Source of the DNA: an uncultured Pelagibacteraceae bacterium
GTDB lineage: Bacteria; Pseudomonadota; Alphaproteobacteria; Pelagibacterales; Pelagibacteraceae
Length of the DNA: 64,000 nucleotides
NCBI GenBank assembly: GCA_902594705.1
Contig: CACJNI010000002.1
Span: 1-64,000, forward strand
Direction: 5' to 3'
Shown here in pieces: positions 13,988 through 30,326 of the stretch; within the stretch, counting starts at the first letter, position 1, and each line of letters begins with the position of its first letter. The notes under the pieces are model-generated. The model did no database searches. It had not been told where the DNA came from and saw only the letters and a program-made list of their open reading frames with translations. The translations under genes and the position numbers were made by a program.

Positions 13988-16015
13988 CTACTGCTGTAAA
14001 CTTGCTAATTCATCAATATTAATATGACATCTAATAGCGTTACCATTTTCACCTATTTGCCATGGTGGAACCTCTAAATTACAAATATCGCCTATTTTCC
14101 TAGGGCATCTTCCTTGAAAAGAACAGCCTTTCTCAGGGGGTTTTTCCTCTACTATATCCTCAGCTACTAATTTTGGTTTTATATCTGGATCTGGTTCCAA
14201 AACAGCACCTAATAATACTTCAGTATAAGGATGTGATGGAAATTTGTAGACATTTTGAGAAGGACCAATTTCACATAATCTTCCTTGATATAAAACTGCA
14301 ACTCTATCACTAATTGCTCTAACAACAGCCAAATCATGAGAAACAAATACATAAGTTGTTCCTAGATCTTCTTTTAATTGTTGTAATAAGTTTAAAACAG
14401 CTGCTTGAACCGAAACATCTAAAGCTGATGTAACCTCATCACACAAAATTATATCTGGCTTAGCAGCAAATGCTCTTGCAACTGCAACTCTTTGTTTCTC
14501 ACCACCTGATAATTGTCTAGGATATCTTGACATATAAAATTCTCCTAACCTTACTTTTTTTAGTAGATCGATTATATTTTTTTTTAATTCTTCTCCTGAT
14601 AAATTAAAATACAACTTTAGAGGCTGAGAAAGTATTTGTTCAACAGTGTGGTTTGGATTTAATGACTCGTCCGGATTTTGAAATATGAGTTGTATTGCTC
14701 GCAGATCATTTGGATTTCTCATTTTTAAATTAGAAGATAATATACGATCATTTTCAAATTTAATTTGACCATCTTTTGTTTTGAGTAAACCAGCAATTGA
14801 TTTTAAGATAGTAGATTTACCACTTCCAGACTCACCAACCAGTGCAATAGTCTCTCCTTTTTTTATATCTATATTTATATCTTTAACTGTTGGGTTTTGA
14901 TCAGAGATTTTATTTAATAATTGATCAAAAAATTTTTGCTTTGCATAACTAATTGAAACATCCTTTAATTTTAAAACTTCAATTGCTTCACTATTATTTG
15001 ATTTTTTTGTTATTGAAGTTTGTAAATTGTTATTTTGATTTATTAATTCATTGTGATTAAAACATCTAACATTGGTATTTAATTCTTTAATATGTTCCAG
15101 ATCTGGTGTATTTTTTTTACAATGATCAGTTGCTAAGTTACATCTATCATAAAAACTACAACCTTCATTTATACTTCCAGGCTGAGGTTGGCTTCCTGGC
15201 ATAGAAGCTGGAAGTCCAGCTAGTGAGAGTTTAGGTATCGATTTTAACAATCCATAAGTATAAGGATGAATAGGTTCCTTTAATATTTTTCTTGCTGGTC
15301 CTTCTAAAACAATTTCTCCCGCATACATTACAACTATTCTATCACTGACTTGCGCTATAGCTCCAAGATCATGACTAACATAGATCATAGATGTTCCAGT
15401 ATCTTTTGCTATAAATCTTAATAGTTCTAATACATGCGCCTGTGTTGTAACGTCTAATCCAGTAGTTGGCTCATCTAACAAAAGTAAATCTGGTTTGCCA
15501 GCCAATGCCATTGCGACAGCCACTCTTTGTTGCTGCCCTCCAGAAAGCTCGTGTGGATAACGAAAAGCCATAGTTTCTGGTGAAGGAAGTCTAACTTTAT
15601 TTAGTAACTCCGAAATTTTTTTATCTCTCTCTGTTTTATTCAGATCTGTATGTAATCTTAATGCTTCATCAATTTGGTATCCAATTTTTAAATTAGGTGT
15701 TAGTGCTTGTCCTGCATTTTGAGGTATCATGGCTATTTTTCTACCTCTAATTTTTTCTAGCTGCCTACTGCTCATCTTCAATAAATCCTCAGATTTAAAG
15801 AGGCATTCACCCTTAAGAGGAAATAAGCCTTGTTTTATATAGCCCATCATTGCAAGTGCTAATGTGCTTTTTCCAGAACCCGACTCCCCTACGATCCCTA
15901 CAGTCTCTCCTTTCTTAATGTTGGTTGAAACATTTCTAAGTATTGAAATTTGTTTGCCCTTCTGACTATTAAATCCAATTGATAAATTTTTAACACTTTC
16001 AATTATTTCGCTCAT
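13988..16015 (-). CDS. Fused dipeptide/oligopeptide ABC transporter ATPase (DppD-DppF type)
   Basis: This 675-residue protein contains two complete ABC ATPase domains. Each has a Walker A (GESGSGKST near residue 43 and again near residue 394), a signature (LSGGQQQRVAVA; LSGGEKQRVAVA) and a Walker B (LLLLDEPTTGLD; IILCDEVTSALD). Each also has the oligopeptide-type C-terminal extension with conserved cysteines (GCSFYDRC, GCSFQGRCP), which in this family can bind an Fe-S cluster. In E. coli the two halves are separate DppD/DppF or fused as in GsiA. It energises import through the two permeases encoded directly upstream. The substrate class is peptide-like by family but not proven. Confidence 0.93.
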   Translation of the reverse strand: MSEIIESVKNLSIGFNSQKGKQISILRNVSTNIKKGETVGIVGESGSGKSTLALAMMGYIKQGLFPLKGECLFKSEDLLKMSSRQLEKIRGRKIAMIPQNAGQALTPNLKIGYQIDEALRLHTDLNKTERDKKISELLNKVRLPSPETMAFRYPHELSGGQQQRVAVAMALAGKPDLLLLDEPTTGLDVTTQAHVLELLRFIAKDTGTSMIYVSHDLGAIAQVSDRIVVMYAGEIVLEGPARKILKEPIHPYTYGLLKSIPKLSLAGLPASMPGSQPQPGSINEGCSFYDRCNLATDHCKKNTPDLEHIKELNTNVRCFNHNELINQNNNLQTSITKKSNNSEAIEVLKLKDVSISYAKQKFFDQLLNKISDQNPTVKDINIDIKKGETIALVGESGSGKSTILKSIAGLLKTKDGQIKFENDRILSSNLKMRNPNDLRAIQLIFQNPDESLNPNHTVEQILSQPLKLYFNLSGEELKKNIIDLLKKVRLGEFYMSRYPRQLSGGEKQRVAVARAFAAKPDIILCDEVTSALDVSVQAAVLNLLQQLKEDLGTTYVFVSHDLAVVRAISDRVAVLYQGRLCEIGPSQNVYKFPSHPYTEVLLGAVLEPDPDIKPKLVAEDIVEEKPPEKGCSFQGRCPRKIGDICNLEVPPWQIGENGNAIRCHINIDELASLQQ

Positions 16016-16909
16016 TTAAACAGGTGCCTTTGTTGAACGATCAATTCCTAAAGCTTTTGCAAATGCATCAGCTGTTAAATTTATTCCAATAATTAACGAA
16101 CTTAATCCTACTATTGGAGCAATTACGGACCAGTATGCAAACGACATCAATCCTCTAGCATTAGATATCATCAAACCCCAATCAGGTGTTGGAGGACTGA
16201 CACCAAAACCTAAGAATGACAATGAGCTAAATCCTAATAACATCCAAGACCATCTCATTGCTCCTTCTACTAATATAGCATCTCTAACATTTGGAATAAT
16301 TTCATTCCAAATAATAGACATGTTGCTATGACCTCTAGCTCTTGCTGAAACTATAAAGTCTTTAGCAATAACATCGTGCGTAGCAGCTCTAGCAACTCTT
16401 ACTATTCCTTTACCATAAAAAAAACCTAGTGCAGGAATTAAAACCTCTGTTGATGTTCCTAAAAGAGAAACAATTAATAACATTGCAAGTATCCAGGGGA
16501 TAGAAAGAAACGCATCAACAACTCTCATTACAACGTCATCAATTTTACCTCCAACTAAACCACAAAAAATTCCAAGTAAACCTCCCCACAGAAGAGCTAT
16601 AAGTGATCCAAAGAAAGTTACCGTAAGAGCTGTTCGCCCTCCAAGTATTGTTCTTGTAAAAACATCTCTACCCAAGCTATCTGTTCCAAACCAATGTTCA
16701 GCTGAGGGTGCAAGTAACATGGTATTTGGGCTAATAGCTTTATAATCGTATGGTGCAATGTAAGGGCTTATTAATGCTAAGATTACATGAAATAATACAA
16801 TTGTAAGTCCAATCAACCCAGAAGGTTTGGAGGCCATAGTTTTTAAAATCTCAAAAGCCTTTTCTAGTTTGTTTTTTTGTTTATCCTCTGTAATTAAATT
16901 ACTCTCCAT
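16016..16909 (-). CDS. dppC: Peptide-type ABC permease, DppC family
   Basis: This 297-residue inner-membrane permease has about six membrane helices. The N-terminal extension ends in a hydrophobic segment followed by APYDYKAISPNTMLLAPSAE and HWFGTDSLGRDVFTR, which is the DppC/OppC hallmark. The coupling helix is ARARGHSNMSIIWNEIIPN (EAA loop). It lies 1 base after the dppB-type gene and directly before the fused ATPase gene, so all three are one unit. The substrate is set by the binding protein at 17953. Confidence 0.92.
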   Translation of the reverse strand: MESNLITEDKQKNKLEKAFEILKTMASKPSGLIGLTIVLFHVILALISPYIAPYDYKAISPNTMLLAPSAEHWFGTDSLGRDVFTRTILGGRTALTVTFFGSLIALLWGGLLGIFCGLVGGKIDDVVMRVVDAFLSIPWILAMLLIVSLLGTSTEVLIPALGFFYGKGIVRVARAATHDVIAKDFIVSARARGHSNMSIIWNEIIPNVRDAILVEGAMRWSWMLLGFSSLSFLGFGVSPPTPDWGLMISNARGLMSFAYWSVIAPIVGLSSLIIGINLTADAFAKALGIDRSTKAPV

Positions 16910-16910
16910 T

Positions 16911-17867
16911 TTATTTTCTTATCTGTAAACTTTTTAATCTTGGATTAAGCATTAGTGTCATTAAATCTGCAATTAAATTTATTCCCACATAGATTGATGC
17001 CAATATTATCGCTAACGCTTGAACAACAGGTAAATCTCTATTTGATATAGACTCAATTACCAGTCTGCCTAAACCTGGATAATTAAAAACTACTTCTGTA
17101 ACAACAACACCTCCTAGCAACCAAGCAATTGTTAGTGCTACTACATTTATTGCTGGCAATAATGCATTTGGCAATACATGTCTAAATACCATTTTCCAAT
17201 ATGGAACACCTTTTAAAATTGCCATTTGCACATAATCACTAGCCATTACTTGAATTACACTTGAACGTACCATTCTTGCCATGTGTGCTGTCATTATCAT
17301 TGAAATAGCAACAACAGGTAAAATTATATTCGAGAGTAATTCATAAAAAGTTGCATCCGATGGTATAATCACGATGCCTGGTAGCCAACCAAGCCAAATT
17401 GCAACAATTAAAATTAGTAAAGTAGCACTAATAAACTCAGGAATAGTCATTGAAAAAATTGTGATAGTTGAGATCATAATATCTGGAAGCTTATCTCTCC
17501 AAAGAGCAGTTATTATTCCTAGTACAATTGCTAAAGGAATTCCTATAAGTATTGAAACAGAGGCTAAAACTAAGGAGTTTTTAACTCTTGGACCTAGTAC
17601 TTCATTAATTGGCATTTCTCCACTTAAAGAGTAACCAAAATCACCTCGTACAACATTTGATGCCCATTCCAAGTATCTTTCATAAGCAGGAACATCTAGA
17701 CCAAGTCTTTTTATGCAAGCATCAAGAGCTGATCCATAAGCTTCTCTCTCTAAATATGTTGTGCATGCATCCCCAGGTAAAACTTCTACACCTACAAATG
17801 TAATCAATGAAACTATAAATAAGGTGATAAGCCCTAGTCCAATTCTTTTTAAAATTAATAAAAGCAT
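16911..17867 (-). CDS. dppB: Peptide-type ABC permease, DppB family
   Basis: This 318-residue inner-membrane permease begins with a helix at residues 7-28. The periplasmic loop region carries RLGLDVPAYERYLEWASN and VVRGDFGYSL, and the EAA loop is AILKGVPYWKMVFRHVLPNAL, here in the usual DppB position. GGVVVTEVVFNYPGLGRLV near the C-terminus is typical of the family. A cysteine-containing insert (about residues 34-50) replaces the shorter first loop of enterobacterial DppB. It is separated from the binding-protein gene by an 85-base gap with a hairpin terminator. Confidence 0.92.
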   Translation of the reverse strand: MLLLILKRIGLGLITLFIVSLITFVGVEVLPGDACTTYLEREAYGSALDACIKRLGLDVPAYERYLEWASNVVRGDFGYSLSGEMPINEVLGPRVKNSLVLASVSILIGIPLAIVLGIITALWRDKLPDIMISTITIFSMTIPEFISATLLILIVAIWLGWLPGIVIIPSDATFYELLSNIILPVVAISMIMTAHMARMVRSSVIQVMASDYVQMAILKGVPYWKMVFRHVLPNALLPAINVVALTIAWLLGGVVVTEVVFNYPGLGRLVIESISNRDLPVVQALAIILASIYVGINLIADLMTLMLNPRLKSLQIRK

Positions 17868-17914
17868 AAGATTAACTAGAACTTTTTAACAAAAATAAAT
17901 TAAATAGAAATAAA

Positions 17915-17942
17915 ATAAAGGCCGCTTTTATGCGGCCTTTAT
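17915..17942 (-). terminator. Hairpin between binding protein and permease genes
   Basis: An 11-bp perfect stem (17915-17925 with 17932-17942; core AAAGGCCGC / GCGGCCTTT) encloses a 6-base loop. It lies 11 bases after the stop of the binding-protein gene and is followed on the minus strand by a T-rich run broken by single A and C. It probably works as a partial terminator or 3'-end stabiliser, so that binding protein is made in excess over the permeases and ATPase downstream. Confidence 0.8.
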
Positions 17943-17952
17943 CTAAATACTT

Positions 17953-19440
17953 TTAGTCAACTTTAACTTTATGCCACTGTATTGAAAAGTGATCTACAGC
18001 ATCAAGGTTTTTAACTTTTGATGAAGTAACTACAAGTCTAGATACATGGTATGGGATCATTGTTCCACTTTGTTCCCATAAAGTCATTTGAGCATTTTGA
18101 TATGCTTTCTTTCTTTTATTGAAATCCAACTCACTTCTAGCATTAGCTAAATTTTTATCAAAGTCAGCGTTTTTGAAGTAAGACTCATTCCATTTAGCTC
18201 CACTATGATAAGCTTCGTGCAAGATTGTGTCTGCTGGTCTTTGATTCCAACGTGTCATTGAAACTGGTTTTTTCATCCATACTTCATTCCAATAACCTTT
18301 AGATGGTACCATCTCAATGTTGACTTTAATTCCAGCCTTTGCAACTTGCTGCTGAACGACTTCTGCAATCGTAGGCCAAGTTGGCTCTAATGTTGCTGGG
18401 TAAACTGTCAATTCAATTCCATTTGGATATCCCGCTTCTCTTAATAAATTTTTTGCTTTACTAATATTTTGAGGACAATCCATTTTTAAACGATACTGAT
18501 CAGATGGCATTACAGGTGTATCGCAAGATACAGTTGCTGCACCTCCCATAACTAGATCTACAAGTTCTTGTCTATCAACTGCTAACCTAAAAGCTTTTCT
18601 CACTTTTGGATTATCAAATGGAGCAGTATCAGTTCTCATAACCACGCCTCTCCAGTTTCCAGTAGGAATTACAGTTGTTGTAAATTTGGAATTACTGTCA
18701 AATATCTTTTTTTGATTGAAAGGAACATATCTATTCATATCAATTTGACCTGTTAAAAGAGCTTGAATTCTTGCTTGAGCATCTGGTATCGCAATGACAT
18801 GAACTTCTGCAACTCCTGGTGCACCTTCCCAATAATCTGGGTTAGCTTTTAGAATTGTAGTTCCTTCTGGATCAAATTTATCAACCATGAATGGTCCAGT
18901 ACCAACTCCAGTCTGACCTATAGTATCCCCTGATCCTTCAGGTATCATTCTTAATCTGTAGTCGGTTAACAATAGTGGAAAGTCAGCAAATGAAGTTGAT
19001 AACTTCATTTTAACAGTATGCTGATCAACTACCTCAATATCTTCAACTACATTTAAACTTTTTCTTACCGGAGATCCAATATCAGGATCTTTAGCTCTCA
19101 TTAGAGAATATTTTACATCTGGAGCATCAAAAGCTGATCCATCATGGAAATATATTCCTTTTCTTAAATTAAATGTCCATTCAGTTGCATCAGAATTAGC
19201 ACTCCAATCTGTTGATAATGAAGGTGATGGAACACCGTTCATATCAGGTCTTACTAATCTATTTTGTGTTTTGATGACAACTTGAAACAAACGCCCCTTT
19301 GTTATGGCATCTAAGTTAGTATCTTTTCCAAATCCAAGATCATGTGATACTTTAAATACTCCACTTGATGCATTGGCAATAGAAAAAGATAATATCAGAG
19401 ACATAAAAGTCGCTGAAAAAACTTTAAGTATGTATTTCAT
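17953..19440 (-). CDS. Periplasmic solute-binding protein, DppA/OppA family
   Basis: This 495-residue protein starts with a signal peptide (hydrophobic residues 4-24, ending IANA/SS). Family segments include VDWSANSDATEWTFNLRKG near residue 80, GIYFHDGSAFDAPDVKYSL and KVRKAFRLAVDRQELVDLV, all from the SBP_bac_5 family that binds dipeptides, oligopeptides, nickel or other organic solutes. It is the first gene of the dpp-type operon. GAGGGAA lies 5 bases before the ATG, a strong ribosome site for this genome and consistent with high expression. The ligand cannot be told. The gene is divergent from the demethylase-type operon at 19581, which raises the question of shared substrate. Confidence 0.92.
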   Translation of the reverse strand: MKYILKVFSATFMSLILSFSIANASSGVFKVSHDLGFGKDTNLDAITKGRLFQVVIKTQNRLVRPDMNGVPSPSLSTDWSANSDATEWTFNLRKGIYFHDGSAFDAPDVKYSLMRAKDPDIGSPVRKSLNVVEDIEVVDQHTVKMKLSTSFADFPLLLTDYRLRMIPEGSGDTIGQTGVGTGPFMVDKFDPEGTTILKANPDYWEGAPGVAEVHVIAIPDAQARIQALLTGQIDMNRYVPFNQKKIFDSNSKFTTTVIPTGNWRGVVMRTDTAPFDNPKVRKAFRLAVDRQELVDLVMGGAATVSCDTPVMPSDQYRLKMDCPQNISKAKNLLREAGYPNGIELTVYPATLEPTWPTIAEVVQQQVAKAGIKVNIEMVPSKGYWNEVWMKKPVSMTRWNQRPADTILHEAYHSGAKWNESYFKNADFDKNLANARSELDFNKRKKAYQNAQMTLWEQSGTMIPYHVSRLVVTSSKVKNLDAVDHFSIQWHKVKVD

Positions 19441-19536
19441 AAGTTCCCTCTTTTTCTTTAGTTGTTTAAATAATCAAAAAGATAACAATTCCAGAACTAG
19501 ATAACAACATGCAAAATGTAGTGATTCATCTACTAA

Positions 19537-19565
19537 TTGAATAGATATTTTAATTAATATACACT
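19537..19565 (+). promoter_or_regulatory. Putative promoter of the 19581-27021 operon
   Basis: TTGAAT at 19537-19542, a 17-base spacer, and TACACT at 19560-19565 give a plausible sigma70 pair, 15 bases before the first ATG of the seven-gene operon. The same 140-base gap must hold the divergent promoter of the peptide-type binding protein. A weak GTAG...CTAC inverted repeat lies at 19519-19534. All of this is read by eye in AT-rich DNA and is tentative. Confidence 0.35.
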
Positions 19566-19580
19566 TTTTCTAAATTATAA

Positions 19581-20804
19581 ATGCAAAACGAATTAAACAA
19601 AGTCAGATTTTCAGTAAAACCTTTAAAATCCAATGATAATAAAGTTGTTGAACTTGCTAGAACTGTAGGAATACATCCTTTAGCATATCAAGAACTTCCT
19701 TATGATCCTGAGTATTCTTTTTATGCTGGAAGATTAAATCCAGAAGTGCTTTCGCATGCAACAGCTGATGAAATGTATTGGAAAGTAAGACAGGAGGTAA
19801 TTTTTCGTCATACTGGTGAACATCCATATGAAATATCTGGTCCTGATGCAGAAAAACTTTTACAAAAAATATTCACAAGAGATATCTCAAAAGTAAAAGT
19901 AGGAAGGTGCTCTTACCAATTCGCTTGTTACAACGATGGAGGCATGCTTACAGATGGAGTTTTACTAAAACTTGAAGAAAATAAATTCTGGTTTGTTCAA
20001 GCTGATGGTGATCTTTTTTCATGGTACAAAGCTCACACTGATAATCTTAATGTAAAAATTTCTGACCCAGACGTTTGGGTAAGTCAAATTCAAGGACCAA
20101 AATCTATGGATCTTTTAAAAGTTTTAAGTAAAGAGACTTTTCCTGATAATTGGAAATATTTTGATTGGAAAGAAATTGCTATACTTAATGAAAAAGTAAT
20201 CATAAGCAGATCAGGATTTAGTAATGAACTTGGTTGGGAAATTTACTTTAGAAAAAATAATAATACTGAAAAAATTGGAGATTATATTCTTGAAGAGGGA
20301 AAAAAAATGGGAATGATACTCACAGGCACACCTGGTTTCAGATGTAAAAGAATTGAATCTGGATTATTATCAGCCGGGCAAGACTTTAATCATGAAACAA
20401 ATCCATATGATGTTGGTTTGGGTAAGTATGTCGATTTAAAAAAAAATTATTTTATCGGGAAATCAGCATTGATGGCTGCTGATAAAGAAAAAAAATGTTG
20501 GGGAATACGAGTAGAAAATGGAACGGGTTTAAAAGGAACTTACATAAAATTTAATAATGAAATAATTGGAAAAATTACATCTAGCACTTGGTCACCTTTT
20601 CAAAAATGTGGTGTTGGAATAGTTTTAATGAATTCTACAAAACATAAACCAGGATTAATAGTGGATGTTAATTGTAATGATAATAAAATTCATAAAGGTG
20701 AGATATGCAGCTTACCAATGTATGACTTTAAAAATGAAATTGTAAGAGGTTTAAAAATCGACATTCCAACAGGTCCTTCTCCGTGGTCAGGAATAAAAAA
20801 ATAA
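19581..20804 (+). CDS. GcvT/DmdA-superfamily aminomethyltransferase-like protein
   Basis: This 407-residue protein is built like the T-protein/DmdA/sarcosine-dehydrogenase C-terminal fold, which passes a one-carbon unit from a methylated substrate to tetrahydrofolate. Evidence includes FRHTGEHPYEISGPDAEKLL near residue 75, the GMLTDGVLLKL segment near residue 128, VSQIQGPKSMDLL, SRSGFSNELGWEIYF near residue 215, and RIESGLLSAGQDFNHETNPYD, where the glutamate contacts folate in this family. It has an N-terminal extension of about 70 residues compared with GcvT. There is no gcvH or gcvP nearby, so glycine cleavage is unlikely. It leads a seven-gene operon that contains a second, distinct family member at 24710. 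Substrate unknown. Confidence 0.82.
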   Translation: MQNELNKVRFSVKPLKSNDNKVVELARTVGIHPLAYQELPYDPEYSFYAGRLNPEVLSHATADEMYWKVRQEVIFRHTGEHPYEISGPDAEKLLQKIFTRDISKVKVGRCSYQFACYNDGGMLTDGVLLKLEENKFWFVQADGDLFSWYKAHTDNLNVKISDPDVWVSQIQGPKSMDLLKVLSKETFPDNWKYFDWKEIAILNEKVIISRSGFSNELGWEIYFRKNNNTEKIGDYILEEGKKMGMILTGTPGFRCKRIESGLLSAGQDFNHETNPYDVGLGKYVDLKKNYFIGKSALMAADKEKKCWGIRVENGTGLKGTYIKFNNEIIGKITSSTWSPFQKCGVGIVLMNSTKHKPGLIVDVNCNDNKIHKGEICSLPMYDFKNEIVRGLKIDIPTGPSPWSGIKK

Positions 20805-21475
20805 TAGCTATTGGTGGTGGTGGATTTACACATTCGTCCGATAAAGACTTGGATGAATATGTTATAAATCAAGTTAATAAATCAAAAATCAATATCGGTT
20901 TTTTACCTACAGCTAGCAATGATAATCAAGAAAAGACCGATCTTTTTTATAAAAGATTTAAATCACAAAAATTTAAATTATCTCATTTTAATCTCTGTTC
21001 AAGAGTGGAAGGTTTTAATGAATGGCTGATGAACAAAGATATAATTTATGTAGGTGGTGGTAATACCTCTAACATGATTAATATTTGGAAAAGACATAAT
21101 CTTATCAAAGTATTTAAAGCTGCATATGAAAAAGGTATAATTCTGGGTGGAATAAGCGCAGGAGCCGTCTGTTGGTTTGATTGGATATTATCAGACTCAG
21201 TCGATAAAAAGCTAAGTCCATTAAAAGGAATAAATTTTTTAGATGGAAGTTGCACGCCACATTCTTCAGATAATAATCGACTACGACAATTTATTTCAGA
21301 AATTAAAGACGGAAATTTACCAGATGGAATAGCCATCGATGATGGTGTAGCTGTGCTTTTTATTGACGGATTTCCTTCAGAGGTTTATTCTTCAAGAATT
21401 AATCATGACGCTTATTATGTGACTAAACATAATAAGATAAGTTTAAAAACATATATAAAGAATATAAATGGATAA
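20783..21475 (+). CDS. Peptidase E-like (family S51) serine hydrolase
   Basis: This 230-residue protein has the S51 signature GGISAGAVCWF at residues 122-132, with nucleophile S125, plus GGGNTSNMI at 91-99 and H160 in SCTPHSS in the position of the catalytic histidine. The family includes alpha-aspartyl dipeptidase PepE and cyanophycinase, both of which act on aspartyl compounds. The start lies 22 bases inside the upstream GcvT-like gene, implying coupled translation, and the end overlaps the next gene by 8 bases. With a peptide-type importer divergently encoded, an Asp-containing dipeptide or an amide-linked osmolyte is a possible substrate; this is inference only. Confidence 0.82.
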   Translation: MVRNKKIIAIGGGGFTHSSDKDLDEYVINQVNKSKINIGFLPTASNDNQEKTDLFYKRFKSQKFKLSHFNLCSRVEGFNEWLMNKDIIYVGGGNTSNMINIWKRHNLIKVFKAAYEKGIILGGISAGAVCWFDWILSDSVDKKLSPLKGINFLDGSCTPHSSDNNRLRQFISEIKDGNLPDGIAIDDGVAVLFIDGFPSEVYSSRINHDAYYVTKHNKISLKTYIKNING

Positions 21476-22628
21476 CATTAAAGCCAGTAAAAAAATTTTT
21501 AGCATTGAAGACGCAAAAAAAATATCAAAGAAAAGATTACCAAAGATAGTTTATGATTTTATTGACGGCGCATCTGGAGATGAAAAGTTATCAGAAATTA
21601 ATAGTTTTGCTTTAGATCAAATACGTCTTGAGCCAAGAGTTCTAAGAAATATAGAGGAAAGAAAATTAAAAAAAAATATTCTTGGATTTAACTATGACTA
21701 TCCATTTGGTTTTGCTCCAATGGGTATGACAAATCTTTCATGGCCGGGCGCAGACTCAATGCTGGCAAAAGAGAGTGCAAGAAATAATATACCAACTTGT
21801 GTATCGATGGCTTCAACAACTACCTTAGAAAAAATGTATGAGCTTTCAGAAGGTCATTCATGGCTTCAACTTTATATTTTCCAAGATGAAGCTTTTGTCA
21901 TGGAATTGCTCGATAGAGCAGAAAAAACCGGTTATGAAGTTGCTATACTTACTGTTGATGTTCCGGTTTTATCTAGAAGAACTAGAGATGATAAAAATGG
22001 ATTTTCATATCCATTTAAAATTGGACCTAAACAATTTCTTGATTTTGCAACTCATCCAGTTTGGTCAATATCTACATTACTTAATGGAATACCAAAGCCA
22101 ATGAACTACGAAACTTCAAAAAGTGGAAAAGGTATTTTTAAAAGAAAAGAAAGTAGGGGAAAAACAGATTGGGAAACTTTAAAAAGAGTAAGAAATAAAT
22201 GGAAAGGCAAATTAATTGTAAAAGGTGTCATGTCATCTGATGATGCAGTTAAAATTAAAGAAATGGGCGCTGATGCTATTCAAGTTTCAAATCATGGAGG
22301 TAGACAATTAGATAGTGCCTCAGCAGCAATAAACATTCTACCTTTTATTAGAGAGGCAGTAGGAAATAATTTTCCAATTATTTTTGATAGTGGAATAAGA
22401 AGTGGAAGCGATATTGTAAGATCATTAGCTTTAGGAGCAGATTTTTCAATGATTGGAAGACCTGTAATGTATGCAATGGGAGCTGATGGCGCTAGCGGGT
22501 TAAGAAGAATTGTAGACATAATTAAAGAAGAAACAAGCACAACGTTAGGTTTGGTTGGATTAAATGATATTAATGAAGTTTCTTCTGATATAATTGAACA
22601 GAAACTTTTTATGAATACAACTTACTAA
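21468..22628 (+). CDS. FMN-dependent alpha-hydroxyacid oxidase/dehydrogenase
   Basis: This 386-residue enzyme belongs to the glycolate oxidase / L-lactate dehydrogenase (LldD) family, which oxidises 2-hydroxyacids to 2-oxoacids. The catalytic base and substrate arginine are H276 and R279 in SNHGGRQLDSA. The flavin-phosphate segments FDSGIRSGSDIVRS and GADFSMIGRP follow, and FAPMGMTNLSWPGAD is in the N-terminal half. The start overlaps the peptidase gene by 8 bases and the ThDP enzyme follows after 1 base. A 2-oxoacid made here could feed the ThDP enzyme. The substrate cannot be assigned between glycolate, lactate, mandelate and others. Confidence 0.9.
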   Translation: MDNIKASKKIFSIEDAKKISKKRLPKIVYDFIDGASGDEKLSEINSFALDQIRLEPRVLRNIEERKLKKNILGFNYDYPFGFAPMGMTNLSWPGADSMLAKESARNNIPTCVSMASTTTLEKMYELSEGHSWLQLYIFQDEAFVMELLDRAEKTGYEVAILTVDVPVLSRRTRDDKNGFSYPFKIGPKQFLDFATHPVWSISTLLNGIPKPMNYETSKSGKGIFKRKESRGKTDWETLKRVRNKWKGKLIVKGVMSSDDAVKIKEMGADAIQVSNHGGRQLDSASAAINILPFIREAVGNNFPIIFDSGIRSGSDIVRSLALGADFSMIGRPVMYAMGADGASGLRRIVDIIKEETSTTLGLVGLNDINEVSSDIIEQKLFMNTTY

Positions 22629-22629
22629 T

Positions 22630-24369
22630 ATGGAAAAAAAAATAAGAGGTGGAGCATTAATTGCAAGAGCATTAAAAGATAAAGGTATTAATAAAGTTTT
22701 TACTCTATCAGGTGGATTTTGTAATCCTGCAATTGAAGGTTTCATGGAATGTCAAATTGATGTAGTTAATTGTCCTCATGAACAAATAGCTGGACACTTA
22801 GCAGATGGACACACCAGAATTACAAGAATACCATCTGTATGTTTAGTTGGACCTGAAGGTTTTGCAAATGCAGTACCATCAATGATGGAAGCATGGGGAG
22901 AAAGAACACCGATAATTTATATTACTGGATCAAGTAGTTTAAAAAGACAAGGCTCAGGTGGCTTTAAAGAAATTGATGATGTTTCAATAGCTGCTCCTCT
23001 TACAAAATATAGCGCAAGCATTACAGATGGAACAAGAATTAGAGAATTTGTTGATAAAGCTTACAGAATTGCAACAAATGGATACCCTGGGGCTGTTCAT
23101 CTAAGTTTACCAGTGGATATAATGTTTTCTTCATTTGAGGAAAATGTTGGACTTGAAGAAAGACCATTTTCACATAAAGCAAAGCCAGTTGCTAAAGCAT
23201 GGCCAGATCCAAATGCTTTATCAAAAATACTTGAGCTAGCTTGTAATGCAAAAAAACCTGTCATAATTGGAGGACATGGTGTTTGGTGGTCAAACTCAGA
23301 AAAAAATTTAGAGACTGCGGGTGAAAGTTTAAATATTCCAGTTTTTAATGTGCCATACCATCAAAAACTTTTGGGAGAAGAGGCAAATGCATATATGGGT
23401 TTAGCAGATATTCACCAATATCCACCTTCAGAATTTGCATTACATAACTCAGACTTAGTTTTAATGATTGGTGCAAGGTTAGATAACCAAATGAATTTTG
23501 GTAACCCTCCTTTCATTCCAAAAACAACAACTTTAGTTTGTATTAACGGTTCCCATGAAGAAATTGAGTTTAATAGAGCAGCTGATCATAACCTTTTATG
23601 TGATCCAGGAGTATTTTTAGATACTCTATGTAATCTGAAGAAAAATAATAAATGGAATTTAGGAAATAGTTGGTTTCAAGATAATAAAAATAGAAAAAAA
23701 GATTGGGTGGATAAATCTTTAAATGAATTAAAAATTGAAGCTGATAAAGCCAAAAAAAATGGTGGAAAAATTCATCCGCTGCAATTAGCGTTAGATGTTC
23801 AAGACGCAATGGATGAGAAAGATTGGCTTGTAATTGATGGAGGAAATACTCATTTCTGGTCGGAGATCGCAATTAATTTAGCAGGAGCTCAAGGAAAAAA
23901 ATTGGGTGGAATTTTACATCCAGGCACATTTAGTATGCTGGGTGTTGGTGTATCATTTGCATTATCTGCAAAAAATAATAACCCTAAATCGAATGTAATT
24001 TTAATTAGTGGAGATGGTGCCTTTTTATCTGGAGGCATGTCTATAGAAACTGCATTTTTTGAAAAGAAACCAATCGTTGTTGTTATTGACAATAATGGTG
24101 GCTTAGCATCAATTGGGCAACAACAAGAAAGATTATTTGAAAGTGGAAAAAGAGTTGCAACAGACTTTAGAGATATACCCTTCCACAGTATATTTGAAGG
24201 CTTTGGGGGTCATGGAGAATTAGTGACGAAAAGAGAAGAATTGGGTCCAGCACTAAAAAGAGCTATTGCAAGCGGTAAAACTGCTTGTGTAAATGTAAAA
24301 GCTAAACCAGTATTAAGTCCAATTGTTGCTGCTGTGGCCAGCAAGAGAGAGAAATCGTCAATAGAGTAA
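22630..24369 (+). CDS. ThDP-dependent acetolactate synthase-like enzyme
   Basis: This 579-residue protein has the three-domain layout of the acetolactate synthase / oxalyl-CoA decarboxylase / 2-hydroxyacyl-CoA lyase superfamily. E51 in CPHEQIAGHLADGH is the cofactor-activating glutamate. GDG at 461-463 and NN at 488-489 delimit the ThDP-Mg motif. The central domain (PVIIGGHGVWWS) may bind a nucleotide or CoA. No acetolactate synthase small subunit is nearby and the context is catabolic, so a decarboxylase or lyase acting on a 2-oxoacid or acyl-CoA is more likely than branched-chain synthesis. Spacing of 1 base on each side places it firmly within the operon. Confidence 0.88.
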   Translation: MEKKIRGGALIARALKDKGINKVFTLSGGFCNPAIEGFMECQIDVVNCPHEQIAGHLADGHTRITRIPSVCLVGPEGFANAVPSMMEAWGERTPIIYITGSSSLKRQGSGGFKEIDDVSIAAPLTKYSASITDGTRIREFVDKAYRIATNGYPGAVHLSLPVDIMFSSFEENVGLEERPFSHKAKPVAKAWPDPNALSKILELACNAKKPVIIGGHGVWWSNSEKNLETAGESLNIPVFNVPYHQKLLGEEANAYMGLADIHQYPPSEFALHNSDLVLMIGARLDNQMNFGNPPFIPKTTTLVCINGSHEEIEFNRAADHNLLCDPGVFLDTLCNLKKNNKWNLGNSWFQDNKNRKKDWVDKSLNELKIEADKAKKNGGKIHPLQLALDVQDAMDEKDWLVIDGGNTHFWSEIAINLAGAQGKKLGGILHPGTFSMLGVGVSFALSAKNNNPKSNVILISGDGAFLSGGMSIETAFFEKKPIVVVIDNNGGLASIGQQQERLFESGKRVATDFRDIPFHSIFEGFGGHGELVTKREELGPALKRAIASGKTACVNVKAKPVLSPIVAAVASKREKSSIE

Positions 24370-24370
24370 A

Positions 24371-24706
24371 ATGGCAAAATTTAGCTCACATTTATTGAAT
24401 GGGTCTGATGGAAATCATGCAACCAACGTTAAAGTAAAGATTTATCAAATACAATCCTCAAAATTAAAAAAGCTTTTTTTGAATACAAAGACTGATGGAA
24501 ATGGTAGGATTACTAAGCATTTCAATCTTAGCAAAAAAGATTGCAAATGCGATTATGAAATGATTTGTAATATTAAAAGATACTTTAAAAAGAAAAAAAT
24601 TGTGGGTGAAATAGTCATAAAATTTAAAATGACCGATAATAAAAAAAATTATCACTTGCCAATAATAATTTCTCCTAACAGCTATACAGTTTGGTGGTCA
24701 AAATAA
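24371..24706 (+). CDS. Transthyretin/HIUase-like protein with altered C-terminus
   Basis: This 111-residue protein matches the 5-hydroxyisourate hydrolase / transthyretin-related family: FSSHLLNGSDG at residues 4-14 (H7), TDGNGRI (R46), and NYHLPIIISP at 93-102 (H95). These are the three catalytic positions. The family normally ends in a conserved YRGS tetrapeptide that closes the active site; here the end reads TVWWSK, so the tetrapeptide is lost. No uricase, OHCU decarboxylase or allantoinase is nearby. It may be a hydrolase of another cyclic ureide or lactam, or a binding protein. It lies 1 base after the ThDP gene and 3 bases before the DmdA-like gene. Confidence 0.7.
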   Translation: MAKFSSHLLNGSDGNHATNVKVKIYQIQSSKLKKLFLNTKTDGNGRITKHFNLSKKDCKCDYEMICNIKRYFKKKKIVGEIVIKFKMTDNKKNYHLPIIISPNSYTVWWSK

Positions 24707-24709
24707 TAT

Positions 24710-25873
24710 ATGGCTTCGTTGATACAAAGCAAAATTAGCACAAAACTAAATATGTCTAGGAGAATAAGAAGAACTCCTTACACCAAGAGAGTAGAAGAAT
24801 GTGGTGTAACTGATTTTACTGTTGTAAATCATATGCTCTTACCAAAAAGATTTCAGAAATCTGTTGAGGATGATTATTGGCATTTAAATGAGCATGTTCA
24901 GCTATGGGATGTTTCTTGTCAAAGACAAGTTCAGATATCAGGTCCAGACGCTAGTTTATTAGTACAAAAAATGACGCCAAGATCTTTAAAAAATATGGAG
25001 ACTGGAAAATGTTTTTATATTCCTATGATAGATGAAAATGCTGGAATGATAAATGATCCAGTGTTGTTAAAGTTAGATGATGATATGTTTTGGATTTCAA
25101 TAGCAGATTCTGATGTATTGCTTTGGGCAAAAGGTATTGCAGTTGGTTTAAATCTAAATGTGAGCATAACAGAACCAGATGTATATCCTCTTGCAGTACA
25201 AGGTCCAAAGTCTGAAGATTTGATGGCATCAATATTCGGAGAAGATATTAGAAAATTAAAATTTTTTAATTTTAGAATATTTGATTTTTTAGGAACTAAA
25301 CAAGTTATTGCAAGATCAGGATATAGCAAACAAGATGGATTTGAGATTTATTTTAAATGCTTTGAAGATTACTTCGACAAAAATGAAATGGGAGAAAAAA
25401 TTTGGGATATAATATGGAAAGCGGGGAAAGAATTTAACATTGCTCCAGGATGCCCAAATTTAATTGACAGAATAGAAGCAGGATTAATGTCATATGGAAA
25501 TGATTTTACAAAAGAAAATAATCCAATTGAATGTAACTTAGAAAAATATTGTAGTGACAAAAGCGATCATGATTTCATTGGAAAAAATGCTTTAGATAAT
25601 ATTAAGAAACAAGGTGTAAAACAAAAATTAAAAGGGGTATTATTTGATGGTGTAGATTGTCCTCCATGTTCAATTCCTTTTCCACTTTATTCAAAAGATA
25701 AGAAATTAATTGGTAAAATTACTTCAGGGATTTATTCTCCAAAATTCAAAAAAAATATTGGTTTATCTATGATTTTAAATGAATTTTGCAAAACAGGATC
25801 AGAAGTTTTAGTTCACACTCCTGATAATAAATTAAGAAAAGGAATTGTGTCCTCTTTACCATTTTCAAAATAA
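24710..25873 (+). CDS. DmdA-like folate-dependent demethylase
   Basis: This 387-residue member of the GcvT superfamily resembles DMSP demethylase DmdA. Segments that favour DmdA over GcvT are RRIRRTPYTKRVEECGV near the N-terminus, VNHMLLPKRF, EHVQLWDVSCQRQVQISG, FWISIADSDVLLWAKG, VQGPKSEDLM and CPNLIDRIEAGLMSYGNDF. DmdA moves one S-methyl group from dimethylsulfoniopropionate to tetrahydrofolate. I cannot tell true DmdA from a related demethylase by eye, so no symbol is given. The ATG at 24710 adds about 14 residues before a second possible start at 24752. It is distinct from the paralogue at 19581. None of dmdB, dmdC or dmdD is present in this window. Confidence 0.8.
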   Translation: MASLIQSKISTKLNMSRRIRRTPYTKRVEECGVTDFTVVNHMLLPKRFQKSVEDDYWHLNEHVQLWDVSCQRQVQISGPDASLLVQKMTPRSLKNMETGKCFYIPMIDENAGMINDPVLLKLDDDMFWISIADSDVLLWAKGIAVGLNLNVSITEPDVYPLAVQGPKSEDLMASIFGEDIRKLKFFNFRIFDFLGTKQVIARSGYSKQDGFEIYFKCFEDYFDKNEMGEKIWDIIWKAGKEFNIAPGCPNLIDRIEAGLMSYGNDFTKENNPIECNLEKYCSDKSDHDFIGKNALDNIKKQGVKQKLKGVLFDGVDCPPCSIPFPLYSKDKKLIGKITSGIYSPKFKKNIGLSMILNEFCKTGSEVLVHTPDNKLRKGIVSSLPFSK

Positions 25874-25896
25874 TAATTAGTAGGTATAAGTCTTAT

Positions 25897-27021
25897 ATGA
25901 AAAGAGCAGTTATAGCAGGATATTCAAGATCACCTTTTACAATGGCAAGAAAAGGTGAATTAATTGATGTTAAGCCTGTAAATATGTTTGCAGAAGTTGT
26001 TAAAAATCTTGTATCTAAAACTAAAGTAAATCCTGCTGATATAGAAGATATTGTTGTTGGGTGTGCTTTCCAGGTTGGAGAGCAGAGTTTTAATATTGGG
26101 AAACTCACAACATTTTTATCTGGAATGGAAATACATACTTCTGGAATGACCGTCGATAGATGGTGTGGTTCTTCTATGGAAGCTATTCATGTTGCAGCAG
26201 GTAAAATAGCAATGGGCGCAGGAAAAGTTTTCGTATGTGGAGGTGTTGAAAGTATGACTAGAGTTACAACTGGCTTTGAACCAATACCTTATCCTTACAC
26301 AGATAAAGAAAATCCAAATGTTTATTTTTCAATGGGAATTACTGCTGAAAATGTTGCCAAGAGATATAAAATTTCAAGAACTGAGCAACAAGAGTTTGCA
26401 ATTCAAAGTCATCAAAAAGCCAATGAAGCTGAAGTTAATGGTAAATTTAAAAATGAAATCGTTGAAATCGCTGGTTGCACAAAAGATGGAAATATACGTC
26501 CAAAAAGTAATCAAGAAACTTTAGATGGTTTAAAACTTGCATTTGATCAAGAAGGAACTGTTACTGCAGCAACATCCTCACCTCTTACCGATGGAGCAGC
26601 AGCAACATTGATATGTGAAGAAAGCTATGCAAAAGAAAATGGTTTAGAGATTTTAGCTAGAATTGTTTCAACTGGAGTTAAAGGATGTGAGCCAGATGTA
26701 ATGGGACTTGGACCTATAGGAGCAACTAAGAAAGCATTAGAGAGAGCAAATTTATCAATTAATGATATCGATATTGTAGAGATTAATGAAGCTTTTGCTT
26801 CTCAATCAATAGCATGCTTAAAAGATCTTGGTATCGATCAAAAGAAAGCTAATTTGGATGGTGGAGCGTTAGCTCTAGGACACCCTCTAGGAGCAACAGG
26901 AGCTAGAATTACTGGCAAAGCTGCTGATTTGCTTAGACGTGAAAATAAGAAATACGCTTTATCTACTCAATGCATCGGTTTAGGTATGGGTATTGCGACT
27001 GTAATCGAGTCGGTAAATTAA
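25897..27021 (+). CDS. Thiolase (acetyl-CoA acyltransferase family)
   Basis: This 374-residue enzyme catalyses CoA-dependent cleavage or formation of 3-oxoacyl-CoA. The nucleophile C90 is in DRWCGSSMEAI, the catalytic H329 in GGALALGHPLGATGAR, and C359 in STQCIGLGMG; NEAFA is also present. It is the last gene of the plus-strand operon, 23 bases after the DmdA-like gene, and could serve beta-oxidation together with the FadN-type protein at 11708. Its stop abuts the convergent potC stop with no gap and no visible terminator. Confidence 0.92.
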   Translation: MKRAVIAGYSRSPFTMARKGELIDVKPVNMFAEVVKNLVSKTKVNPADIEDIVVGCAFQVGEQSFNIGKLTTFLSGMEIHTSGMTVDRWCGSSMEAIHVAAGKIAMGAGKVFVCGGVESMTRVTTGFEPIPYPYTDKENPNVYFSMGITAENVAKRYKISRTEQQEFAIQSHQKANEAEVNGKFKNEIVEIAGCTKDGNIRPKSNQETLDGLKLAFDQEGTVTAATSSPLTDGAAATLICEESYAKENGLEILARIVSTGVKGCEPDVMGLGPIGATKKALERANLSINDIDIVEINEAFASQSIACLKDLGIDQKKANLDGGALALGHPLGATGARITGKAADLLRRENKKYALSTQCIGLGMGIATVIESVN

Positions 27022-27876
27022 TTATCTATTAATTCCTCTTAAACGTTCTGATCTTCTTCTTAATAATTCAGCACTTATCAATATTAAGGTCGATAAAACA
27101 ATTAAACATGTAGCAACTGCTAGAATTGTAGGACTTAATTGTTCTCTTAAACCTGTCCACATTTGAATTGGAATAGTTGTATTTTCAAGACCAGCTAAAA
27201 ATAAAACGACTACAACTTCATCAAAAGAAGTTACAAAAGCAAACAAACCTCCTGATATTACTCCAGGTAAAATCAACGGAAGTGTTACTTTCATAAATGT
27301 ATTTACTGGGTTACTGCCTAAACTAGCTGCCGCTCTTGTTACACTATGATCGAAACCTGATAATGTTGCAGTAACAGTAATTACAACAAAAGGTGTTCCC
27401 AAAATTATATGAGCTAAAACTATTCCTGTATGAGTTGCCGCTAAACCTGCTTTTGCCATAAAAAAGAATATTGCAACACCTGATATAATAAGTGGTACTA
27501 TCATTGGTGAAATCAAAGTTGCCATTATTATTCCTTTAAAGGGCATGTGTCTGCTGCTCAATCCTAATGCAGCAACCGTTCCTAAAATTACCGACCCTAA
27601 AGTTGCAAATATAGCAATAATAAAACTATTCTTTGCAGCAAGACCCCATGGGTTCTTTGTACCGTAAACCATATCCTTGTACCATCTTAATGAAAAAGCA
27701 TCTGGGTCTAAATTCTTCATTCCTTCTGAAAAAACAAGAAACTCTTCTGCATTAAATGATAATGGAAATATTACAAACAAAGGTGCTATTAAAAAAATAA
27801 AAACAAAAGTACATATGGCAATGTAAAAGTAGTGCCAAATTCTATATCTAGTTTCTGTATACTTTGGTAATGCCAT
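27022..27876 (-). CDS. potC: Polyamine-type ABC permease PotC
   Basis: This 284-residue inner-membrane protein has six membrane helices. The EAA loop is RAAASLGSNPVNTFMKVTLPL, and the PLFVIFPLSFNAEEFL segment after the first helix is typical of PotC/PotI. It is encoded 1 base after potB, the last gene of the unit. The family moves spermidine or putrescine, but the same fold also imports other cations and amino-acid derivatives. The operon contains a DoeA-like enzyme, so the cargo is uncertain. Confidence 0.9.
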   Translation of the reverse strand: MALPKYTETRYRIWHYFYIAICTFVFIFLIAPLFVIFPLSFNAEEFLVFSEGMKNLDPDAFSLRWYKDMVYGTKNPWGLAAKNSFIIAIFATLGSVILGTVAALGLSSRHMPFKGIIMATLISPMIVPLIISGVAIFFFMAKAGLAATHTGIVLAHIILGTPFVVITVTATLSGFDHSVTRAAASLGSNPVNTFMKVTLPLILPGVISGGLFAFVTSFDEVVVVLFLAGLENTTIPIQMWTGLREQLSPTILAVATCLIVLSTLILISAELLRRRSERLRGINR

Positions 27877-27877
27877 A

Positions 27878-29140
27878 CTATCCTAACTTAATATTATCAA
27901 CTCCAACTAATTTATTATAAAGCCAATAGATAACCAAAACTCCTCCAAGCAACATAAGCCCCATCGCTGAAGCAAAACTCCAATCTAAAGTAGTTTTCAT
28001 ATGATATGCAATTTGGTTACTAATTAAGGTTCCTGATGCTCCCCCAACTAAAGCGGGTGTGATGTAGTATCCAATTGCTAAAATAAAAACTAAAAGACAC
28101 CCTGCCCCGATACCTGGTATGGTTAATGGAAAATATACTTTCCAAAAAGCCACAAAAGGTGTTCCGCCAAGAGATTTACCTGCTCTCATTAAACTTGGCG
28201 AGATAGTTTTCATCACACTGTAAAGTGGTAAAACCATAAATGGTAATAGAATTTGTGTCATAGCAACATAAGTTCCGACTTTGTTGTACATCATTTCTGG
28301 CCTATTATCGTCTGACACAAGGCCAATCAATACAAAGAAATCATTAACTACTCCTTGCTGTTGAAGCAAAATCATCCAGCTAGCTGTTCTAACTAATAAC
28401 GACGTCCAAAACGGAAGAAGAACACAAATCATTAATAAATTACTATACTTCATTGGAAGTGTTGCTAGTAAATGGGCTATTGGGTAACCCATTAAGAAAC
28501 AGAATACAGTAACAAAGAAAGCAACCTCTACAGTTCTCAACCATAAAATTCTATGTATTCTTCTATCTTCACTAACTTGAGTAATTTTGTTATCTTCATT
28601 CAAATACATATCCATAGCTTTTAAATATTTAGCTGAAGTGTAAGGAGGTGCAGTCCTTTTAATAGCTTGCCAATATTCTACATTTCTCCATCTCTTATGA
28701 ACTTTCATTATTTGTTCTTTAATACTTTGTGTCTCGTCAATTTTATTTCTTTTTACCTGTCTGAATAATTTTTTTGTGATGGTGTTGAACCCATTTTTTT
28801 CTTTATTAAGTCTTTGAGCTAGTTTTCCATGTTCTTTTTTTTCTACAAGAATTTTAAAATCAGATAAAAATGAAGCAAATACTTCTTCAGATGGAAGTTC
28901 TTTACCGTCCCATGTTTCCATAGACTTAAATGTTTTTGGAAGCATGTTTGTAATCATTTTATCATCAATACTTCTTGTAAACATTTCTCCGATTGGAAAA
29001 ATATAAGTAATAATCAAAAAAAGTAGTAATGGCGCAACAAGTAAAAATGCTTTAATTTTGTTTTTTCTTTCAGCTTTTTTTAAACTTATCTCTAAAGGAA
29101 TTCCGTCAGTTGTAAGTATTTGTTTTGTTTCGCTGCTCAT
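27878..29140 (-). CDS. potB: Polyamine-type ABC permease PotB with long periplasmic insert
   Basis: This 420-residue protein is longer than E. coli PotB (about 275-285). The first helix (about residues 30-50) is followed by some 150 mostly charged, helical residues (about 55-200) before the remaining five helices. The EAA loop is RAGKSLGGTPFVAFWKVYFPL. The insert would lie in the periplasm, facing the binding protein. Similar long PotB forms exist in alphaproteobacteria. The ATG sits only about 9 bases after a hairpin terminator with no purine-rich ribosome site between them, so its translation start is unusual. Confidence 0.9.
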   Translation of the reverse strand: MSSETKQILTTDGIPLEISLKKAERKNKIKAFLLVAPLLLFLIITYIFPIGEMFTRSIDDKMITNMLPKTFKSMETWDGKELPSEEVFASFLSDFKILVEKKEHGKLAQRLNKEKNGFNTITKKLFRQVKRNKIDETQSIKEQIMKVHKRWRNVEYWQAIKRTAPPYTSAKYLKAMDMYLNEDNKITQVSEDRRIHRILWLRTVEVAFFVTVFCFLMGYPIAHLLATLPMKYSNLLMICVLLPFWTSLLVRTASWMILLQQQGVVNDFFVLIGLVSDDNRPEMMYNKVGTYVAMTQILLPFMVLPLYSVMKTISPSLMRAGKSLGGTPFVAFWKVYFPLTIPGIGAGCLLVFILAIGYYITPALVGGASGTLISNQIAYHMKTTLDWSFASAMGLMLLGGVLVIYWLYNKLVGVDNIKLG

Positions 29141-29148
29141 AAATAAAA

Positions 29149-29172: not shown

Positions 29173-29207
29173 ATATATATTATATTATTCTAGTCTTTTA
29201 TACTCTT

Positions 29208-30323: not shown

Positions 30324-30326
30324 TTA

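What the first reader, a model, noticed from the sequence alone, without database searches (positions are those of the whole stretch)
19581..27021. Seven-gene operon with two different GcvT/DmdA-type demethylases, a ThDP enzyme and a transthyretin-like protein
Seen: seven plus-strand genes with gaps of 1-23 bases or overlaps of 8-22 bases: GcvT-like, S51 peptidase, FMN 2-hydroxyacid oxidase, ThDP lyase/decarboxylase-like, HIUase-like, DmdA-like and thiolase. Known: GcvT/DmdA proteins move methyl groups to tetrahydrofolate; 2-hydroxyacid oxidases make 2-oxoacids that ThDP enzymes can cleave. Inference: the operon breaks down a methylated (N-, S- or O-methyl), perhaps amide- or peptide-linked compound, removing two methyl groups and then degrading the carbon skeleton to acyl-CoA. 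I know no described pathway with this set. The divergently encoded peptide-type importer (13988-19440) could bring in the substrate.
Basis: partly seen in the sequence, partly recalled or inferred. Interest (0 to 1): 0.78.

Follow-up and report, generated by a model that had tools for sequence, protein, structure and literature searches.

The report
SAR11 betaine-type demethylation operon
A seven-gene cluster in a SAR11 bacterium holds a four-gene core that recurs in the same order in six families of Alphaproteobacteria; it likely breaks down a methylated, positively charged (betaine-type) nutrient by a route we did not find described, and the nutrient itself is still unknown.

Summary
In detail: seven plus-strand genes overlap or lie within 23 bases of each other (19581-27021), beside a divergent peptide-type importer. 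Four of them (FMN 2-hydroxyacid-oxidase-like, ThDP enzyme, HIUase/transthyretin-like, DmdA-like) form a module also found outside Pelagibacteraceae. In ThDP loci with enough flank, the HIUase-like gene follows in 131 of 131, the DmdA-like gene in 127 of 131, and the oxidase-like gene precedes in 124 of 129. g1 and the ThDP gene occur in the same 10 of 147 Pelagibacteraceae genomes. g6 passes NCBIfam's DmdA cut-off but forms a clade outside the sampled DmdAs, with moderate support 83/94; g1 is a separate deep clade. Elsewhere an MttB-family methyltransferase appears where g1 is absent: g1 in 6 and MttB in 9 of 32 loci, never both. The HIUase-like protein keeps His/Arg/His but lost the Tyr of the usual end motif. 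Best reading (0.45): catabolism of a quaternary-ammonium compound with a 2-hydroxyacid arm; a sulfonium compound is the main rival. Substrate and step order are not shown.

The parts
19581..20804 (+). g1: GcvT-like protein, predicted folate-dependent demethylase of its own clade
   Evidence: GCV_T 141.7 bits; below the DmdA (207.2 vs 410) and GcvT (110.8 vs 235.85) cut-offs; clade 100/100; in the same 10 of 147 family genomes as g4
20783..21475 (+). g2: peptidase S51-like hydrolase
   Evidence: Peptidase_S51 120.5 bits; Ser of GxSAGA and His kept in 19 of 19 rows; in 18 of 32 loci
21468..22628 (+). g3: FMN 2-hydroxyacid oxidase/dehydrogenase-like
   Evidence: FMN_dh 394.2 bits; best single-stretch PDB match (S)-mandelate dehydrogenase 6bfg, 247 bits; core gene
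22630..24369 (+). g4: ThDP enzyme, predicted 2-oxoacid decarboxylase or 2-hydroxyacyl lyase type
   Evidence: TPP_enzyme N, M, C; PHEQ Glu and GDG...NN kept in 33 of 33 rows; PDB best matches labelled oxalyl-CoA decarboxylase / 2-hydroxyacyl-CoA lyase
24371..24706 (+). g5: HIUase/transthyretin-like hydrolase with altered C-terminal end
   Evidence: Transthyretin 70.4 bits; 70.8 vs cut-off 87.45 for hydroxyisourate hydrolase; directly after g4 in 131 of 131 loci; model pLDDT 94.2, HIUase fold
24710..25873 (+). g6: DmdA-like predicted THF-dependent demethylase, clade outside the sampled DmdAs
   Evidence: 531.8 bits vs DmdA cut-off 410; 49% identity to PDB DmdA against 77% for the genome's other copy; tree; residues
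25897..27021 (+). g7: thiolase, Pelagibacteraceae loci only
   Evidence: Thiolase N and C; 5 of 32 loci
17953..19440 (-). Binding protein of the divergent importer, predicted to bring in the substrate
   Evidence: SBP_bac_5 280.7 bits; homologues of 55-99% identity in 17 of 32 loci
13988..17867 (-). Importer: two permeases (16911-17867, 16016-16909) and a two-domain ATPase (13988-16015); family names by eye
   Evidence: ORFs; homologues travel with the binding protein
19441..19580 (.). 140-base space between importer and operon, likely holds divergent promoters
   Evidence: Coordinates; no promoter scan was run

Best explanation
The window holds a seven-gene cluster whose four-gene core (2-hydroxyacid-oxidase-like, ThDP enzyme, HIUase/transthyretin-like, DmdA-like) recurs in the same order in six families of Alphaproteobacteria, and it likely breaks down a quaternary-ammonium (betaine-type) compound, with the GcvT-like and DmdA-like enzymes predicted to pass methyl groups to tetrahydrofolate. 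Shown here: gene content, order, co-occurrence, clades and residues. Inferred: the importer brings in the substrate. A first methyl leaves through g1 in the genomes where no MttB and no PF02607 corrinoid protein was found, and through an MttB-family methyltransferase with a corrinoid protein in many others. g6 takes a methyl to THF. g3 oxidises a 2-hydroxyacid arm to a 2-oxoacid and g4 cleaves it, as mandelate dehydrogenase and benzoylformate decarboxylase do. g5 hydrolyses an activated amide or acyl intermediate next to the g4 step. S51, thiolase and other neighbours finish the skeleton differently in each lineage.
For: Core order 131/131, 127/131, 124/129. g1 and g4 in the same 10 of 147 genomes. 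g1 in 6 and MttB in 9 of 32 loci, never both (MttB is PF06253). Of the 34 operon genomes searched (of 48 in hand) MttB is in 25 and PF02607 in 23, and the 7 genomes of f1, f134 and f168 have neither. Published work assigns PF06253 MtgB plus corrinoid MtgC to glycine betaine demethylation in marine bacteria and says that SAR11 lacks MtgBCDE (PMC12478193, passages). In L168 the core runs into BKACE and a carnitine 3-dehydrogenase above its cut-off, 647.1 vs 592. L101 has choline-dehydrogenase-like and betaine-aldehyde-dehydrogenase-like genes further on, both below their cut-offs. g3 matches mandelate dehydrogenase over its whole length.
Against: g6 is closest to an S-demethylase. L171 has a Cys/Met-type PLP enzyme beside g6, a sulfur hint. 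The L101 homocysteine S-methyltransferase fits betaine or sulfonium donors and is below both cut-offs (86.7 vs 338; 84.3 vs 215). 14 of 35 genomes with operon-type MttB lack the ThDP gene and 10 of 31 with the ThDP gene lack that MttB. L136-L138 and L163 lack g3 and g6, and L157 lacks g3. 17 of 32 loci show neither g1 nor MttB nearby. Tertiary amines are poor methyl donors, which makes a second redox-neutral demethylation hard (general chemistry). For g4 the best NCBIfam model is an acetolactate synthase (272.9 vs 587). No metabolite or expression data.
Confidence: 0.45

Rival explanations
1. The substrate is a sulfonium relative of DMSP, for example a dimethylsulfonio-2-hydroxyacid or a gonyol-like compound; g6 S-demethylates it and g3 plus g4 oxidise and decarboxylate the hydroxyacid arm.
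For: g6 is 49% identical to DmdA. Homocysteine S-methyltransferase in L101, Cys/Met PLP enzyme beside g6 in L171, aminotransferase after the thiolase in L094 and L095 (BCAT-like by eye).
Against: MttB-family genes in 9 of 32 loci and carnitine 3-dehydrogenase in L168 point to nitrogen. One S-demethylase would be enough for a sulfonium. g5 and S51 have no obvious role.
Confidence: 0.22
2. g6 is simply a second DMSP demethylase and the cluster is a DMSP operon with extra genes.
For: g6 scores 531.8 against a DmdA cut-off of 410; the genome's own DmdA scores 572.3. SAR116 surveys report dmdA across most of that group (PMC12262181, passages).
Against: All 5 f1 and f134 operon genomes searched hold a separate DmdA of 66-100% identity to the window genome's own copy. 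g6 lies outside the sampled DmdA clade. Tyr32 of DmdA (16 of 16) is Val in 30 of 30 operon copies. DMSP demethylation needs no ThDP enzyme or HIUase (general knowledge).
Confidence: 0.13
3. The substrate is an N-methylated purine or ureide; g5 acts as a true hydroxyisourate-type hydrolase and the demethylases act on ring methyl groups.
For: g5 has the HIUase fold and keeps His, Arg, His in 33 of 33 rows. An agmatinase above its cut-off lies beside the core in L164, with a relative in L171.
Against: The Tyr of the HIUase end is Trp in 33 of 33 rows and g5 is below the HIUase cut-off. No purine-ring gene was among the neighbours typed by Pfam (39 proteins; not every neighbour was typed). Braakman et al. 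judged a second HIUase homologue in SAR11 and SAR116 to have another function (PMC11698098, passage); that it is g5 is my inference.
Confidence: 0.07

Closest known systems
DmdA, DMSP demethylase of Pelagibacter (PDB 3tfh)
   Same: g6 aligns over its whole length at 49% identity and passes the NCBIfam DmdA cut-off
   Different: Separate clade (83/94); Tyr32 to Val, Glu63 to Gln, Trp197 to Tyr in 30 of 30 (5 of 16 DmdA rows also have Tyr at 197); sits in a different gene set
MtgBCD glycine betaine demethylation of marine roseobacters (PMC12478193, passages)
   Same: PF06253 methyltransferase and a corrinoid protein occur in many operon genomes
   Different: Operon-type MttB is a subfamily apart from the other MttB proteins (35-41% identity) of the same genomes; Pelagibacteraceae carriers have g1 instead
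Mandelate pathway pair, (S)-mandelate dehydrogenase plus benzoylformate decarboxylase (pair recalled)
   Same: g3 best single-stretch match is mandelate dehydrogenase and it stands next to a ThDP enzyme
   Different: Family-conserved Tyr is Phe in 25 of 29 g3 rows; g4 is closer to 2-hydroxyacyl-CoA lyase/oxalyl-CoA decarboxylase in the PDB
5-hydroxyisourate hydrolase (PDB 4q14)
   Same: Transthyretin fold (TM 0.85) and His7, Arg46, His95 kept
   Different: Trp instead of Tyr at the end motif, and an invariant His16 where the three solved enzymes aligned have Pro; no purine genes beside it among those typed

Membership tests
DmdA (for g6) | NCBIfam NF009133 cut-off | tested here: met
   531.8 vs 410 bits
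DmdA (for g6) | Groups with characterised P. ubique DmdA and roseobacter DmdA | tested here: not met
   Operon copies form one side of a branch, 83/94, 98% of 200 bootstrap trees; moderate support, named clade references not included
DmdA (for g6) | DMSP demethylation to 5-methyl-THF | not testable with these tools
   Needs enzyme assay
DmdA (for g1) | NCBIfam NF009133 cut-off | tested here: not met
   207.2 vs 410
GcvT of glycine cleavage (for g1) | NCBIfam TIGR00528 cut-off | tested here: not met
   110.8 vs 235.85
5-hydroxyisourate hydrolase (for g5) | NCBIfam TIGR02962 cut-off | tested here: not met
   70.8 vs 87.45
5-hydroxyisourate hydrolase (for g5) | Catalytic His, Arg, His (roles recalled) | tested here: met
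   33 of 33 rows each
5-hydroxyisourate hydrolase (for g5) | C-terminal YRGS (motif recalled) | tested here: not met
   Tyr position is Trp in 33 of 33; solved enzymes show Tyr there in 3 of 3 alignments
2-hydroxyacyl-CoA lyase / oxalyl-CoA decarboxylase (for g4) | NCBIfam cut-offs | tested here: not met
   236.6 vs 600; 202.1 vs 557 and 190.5 vs 739.4
MttB superfamily (for the operon methyltransferase of other genomes) | PF06253 cut-off | tested here: met
   386.2 vs 25; below the pyrrolysine-type TIGR02369 cut-off, 328.9 vs 525

The most novel reading that the evidence does not exclude
An undescribed catabolic pathway for an unidentified marine onium nutrient: a fixed oxidase-ThDP-transthyretin-DmdA-like core around which lineages exchange the first demethylase (corrinoid MttB type, folate GcvT type in SAR11 genomes without a detected corrinoid partner, perhaps dioxygenases in f168), with a transthyretin-fold hydrolase and a DmdA sister clade recruited to new substrates.
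Probability: 0.5. Interest if true: 0.78.

Novelty: new variant of a known kind. Interest (0 to 1): 0.62.

Why it matters
A module kept in fixed order in six alphaproteobacterial families, SAR11 among them, implies a nutrient worth keeping genes for, even in the small genomes of SAR11. It may give a home to the second HIUase homologue that Braakman et al. set aside as having another function (PMC11698098, passage). It also shows that proteins passing the NCBIfam DmdA cut-off can lie outside the DmdA clade, so dmdA inventories may count them; published SAR116 surveys differ on how widely dmdA occurs (PMC12262181 and PMC8547437, passages), and whether g6 explains that is untested. The exchange of a B12-linked for a folate-type demethylase can be tested directly.

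Tried and rejected
A ThDP-HIUase fusion in L140 (745-aa ORF) was suspected and rejected: the extra length is an upstream over-extension. The first adjacency count misplaced HIUase hits because over-long ORFs served as queries; trimmed queries, and wider distance limits for the oxidase and HIUase genes, gave the counts used. Agmatinase (L164, L171) and the pot polyamine importer (window, L171) were weighed as substrate clues and set aside because most loci lack them. The g1 structure model was poor (pLDDT 54.8) and was not used. Homarine and trigonelline catabolism were considered; the searches gave nothing usable, and so did a search for SAR11 binding-protein work. A search for papers with at least 3 of 'hydroxyisourate hydrolase', 'thiamine pyrophosphate', 'demethylase', 'Pelagibacter' found none; one paper holds both 'hydroxyisourate' and 'SAR11'; three hold SAR11, DmdA, GcvT and operon, and the passages I read in them do not describe this cluster. 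bioRxiv and most subscription papers are not held, so absence from print is not shown.
Full report
OBSERVATION. The window lies in a SAR11-type genome: the 80 loci kept, of 301 relatives of the ThDP gene in the genome collection, are titled Pelagibacteraceae or Pelagibacterales. Pfam types each as stated. The genome has 11 GCV_T matches; one is a separate DmdA, 77% identical to the PDB enzyme, whereas g6 is 49% and g1 34% identical to it.

CONSERVATION. g1 and the ThDP gene g4 occur in exactly the same 10 of 147 Pelagibacteraceae genomes. g4 was found in 31 of 136 genomes of the order of G258 (unnamed; I take it to be SAR116), in 12 of 295 of family f22 (unnamed; I take it to be Rhodobacteraceae, because one dmdA there has what reads by eye as acuI next door), and in 2 of 398 sampled from the phylum, one being the own genome. 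The short HIUase-like protein was found in 5 of 386 sampled from the class, own genome included. Of 133 ThDP loci, those with enough flank have the HIUase-like gene directly downstream in 131 of 131, the DmdA-like gene in 127 of 131 and the oxidase-like gene upstream in 124 of 129; without the 80 SAR11 contigs, 53/53, 49/53 and 48/53. Misses: L136, L137, L138 and L163 lack both the DmdA-like and the oxidase-like gene, L157 the oxidase alone. The full four-gene core is present in families f1, f134, f103, f167, f169 and f22. All these loci were found through g4 or, for L101, through g5, so the figures say how often neighbours follow it, not the reverse.

CLADES AND RESIDUES. In a tree of 62 rows the 30 operon DmdA-like proteins form one side of a branch (83/94; 98% of 200 bootstrap trees), apart from P. 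ubique DmdA and the roseobacter-type DmdA rows. g1 and its relatives (7 rows) form a 100/100 clade on a long branch that meets another long branch, so its exact place is unsure. Tyr32 in 16 of 16 DmdA rows is Val in 30 of 30 operon rows; Glu63 (15 of 16) is Gln in 30 of 30; Trp197 (11 of 16, the other 5 Tyr) is Tyr in 30 of 30. I recall 197 and 206 as substrate-site positions; the structure paper is not held, and 206 is Tyr in 16 of 16 and 29 of 30. All 5 f1 and f134 operon genomes searched hold a separate DmdA at 66-100% identity to the own copy.

THE EXCHANGEABLE DEMETHYLASE. In 32 loci with long flanks g1 lies in 6 (f1, f134) and an MttB-family gene (PF06253) in 9 (order of G258 and f22), never both; 17 have neither nearby. 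L101 has a homocysteine S-methyltransferase beside g1. I gave 34 of 48 operon genomes to two further searches: MttB was found in 25 of 34 and a PF02607 corrinoid protein in 23 of 34; the 7 genomes of f1, f134 and f168 have neither; G444, G445, G1059 and G1144 have MttB without PF02607, G525 and G1154 the reverse. In the order of G258, operon-type MttB is in 35 of 136 and g4 in 31 of 136; 21 have both, and in 15 of the 21 they lie within about 6 kb on one contig. Published work assigns PF06253 MtgB with corrinoid MtgC to glycine betaine demethylation in marine bacteria and says SAR11 lacks MtgBCDE (PMC12478193, passages). Carriers of the operon-type MttB mostly hold other MttB proteins at 35-41% identity to it as well, so the operon type probably serves another substrate.

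NEIGHBOURS. L168: after g6, BKACE and a carnitine 3-dehydrogenase above its cut-off. L164 and L170: acyl-CoA dehydrogenase; L101 and L170: enoyl-CoA hydratase. L171: Cys/Met PLP enzyme. L164: agmatinase, with a relative in L171. L165: ApbA, FAA-hydrolase-type and Ldh_2 proteins. L094 and L095: an aminotransferase, BCAT-like by eye. L144 and L147 (f168) lack g3 and g6 and instead have PhyH dioxygenases and a 138-143 aa protein without Pfam match; L144 also TauD, TctA, TctC and a class III CoA transferase, L147 a NuoE/F-type protein. Both nitrogen and sulfur hints are thus present.

OTHER PROTEINS. g5 keeps His, Arg and His in 33 of 33 rows and has Trp at the Tyr position of the HIUase end in 33 of 33, plus an invariant His16 in 15 of 15 sequences where the three aligned solved enzymes have Pro; its model (pLDDT 94.2) matches HIUases best. 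For g3 the top PDB row is a tandem lactate oxidase (135 bits per domain); the best single stretch is (S)-mandelate dehydrogenase 6bfg, 247 bits, aligned through the segment absent from 1huv. A family Tyr is Phe in 25 of 29 g3 rows, Tyr in 2, gap in 2. g4 keeps the Glu of PHEQ and GDG...NN in 33 of 33; its nearest PDB chains are labelled oxalyl-CoA decarboxylase or 2-hydroxyacyl-CoA lyase, its best NCBIfam model is an acetolactate synthase far below cut-off (272.9 vs 587).

READING. The invariant part carries one demethylase and enzymes of the 2-hydroxyacid to 2-oxoacid to cleavage type; the exchangeable part is a demethylase whose known relatives in the MttB family act mostly on quaternary amines. 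I therefore commit to a quaternary-ammonium substrate (0.45), with sulfonium 0.22, plain DMSP 0.13 and methylated purine 0.07. Substrate, order of steps and the roles of g2 and g5 are inference. Braakman et al. note a second HIUase homologue in SAR11 and SAR116 outside purine operons with presumably another function (PMC11698098, passage); that it is g5 is my inference.

Noticed in passing
G000 whole genome: 11 GCV_T-domain matches in a 1.32-Mb genome of 27 contigs, window copies included.
   Followed up: partly
L144 and L147 (f168): ThDP-HIUase pair without oxidase and DmdA-like genes but with PhyH dioxygenases and a 138-143 aa protein with no Pfam match.
   Followed up: partly
L168 5962-9815: HIUase-like and DmdA-like genes run straight into BKACE and carnitine 3-dehydrogenase genes.
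   Followed up: partly
L211-L217: A third DmdA-like group (37-42% to PDB DmdA) away from the operon that keeps Tyr32 and Trp197 in 7 of 7 rows; SAR11_1265 of HTCC1062 in PMC3160333 may belong to it (untested).
   Followed up: partly
L095 6739-7467: A minus-strand ORF of 242 aa that reads by eye like a binding protein without a signal peptide sits between g1 and S51.
   Followed up: no
window 11708-13930 and 27022-31524: A FadB/J-like gene beyond the importer and a polyamine-type ABC cluster beyond the thiolase, names by eye; the latter is also near the core in L171.
   Followed up: no
G561:C1:210107-211690: The MttB alignment reads through 2 TAA codons, probably upstream of the 521-aa frame; a second copy lies at 2175786-2177300.
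   Followed up: no
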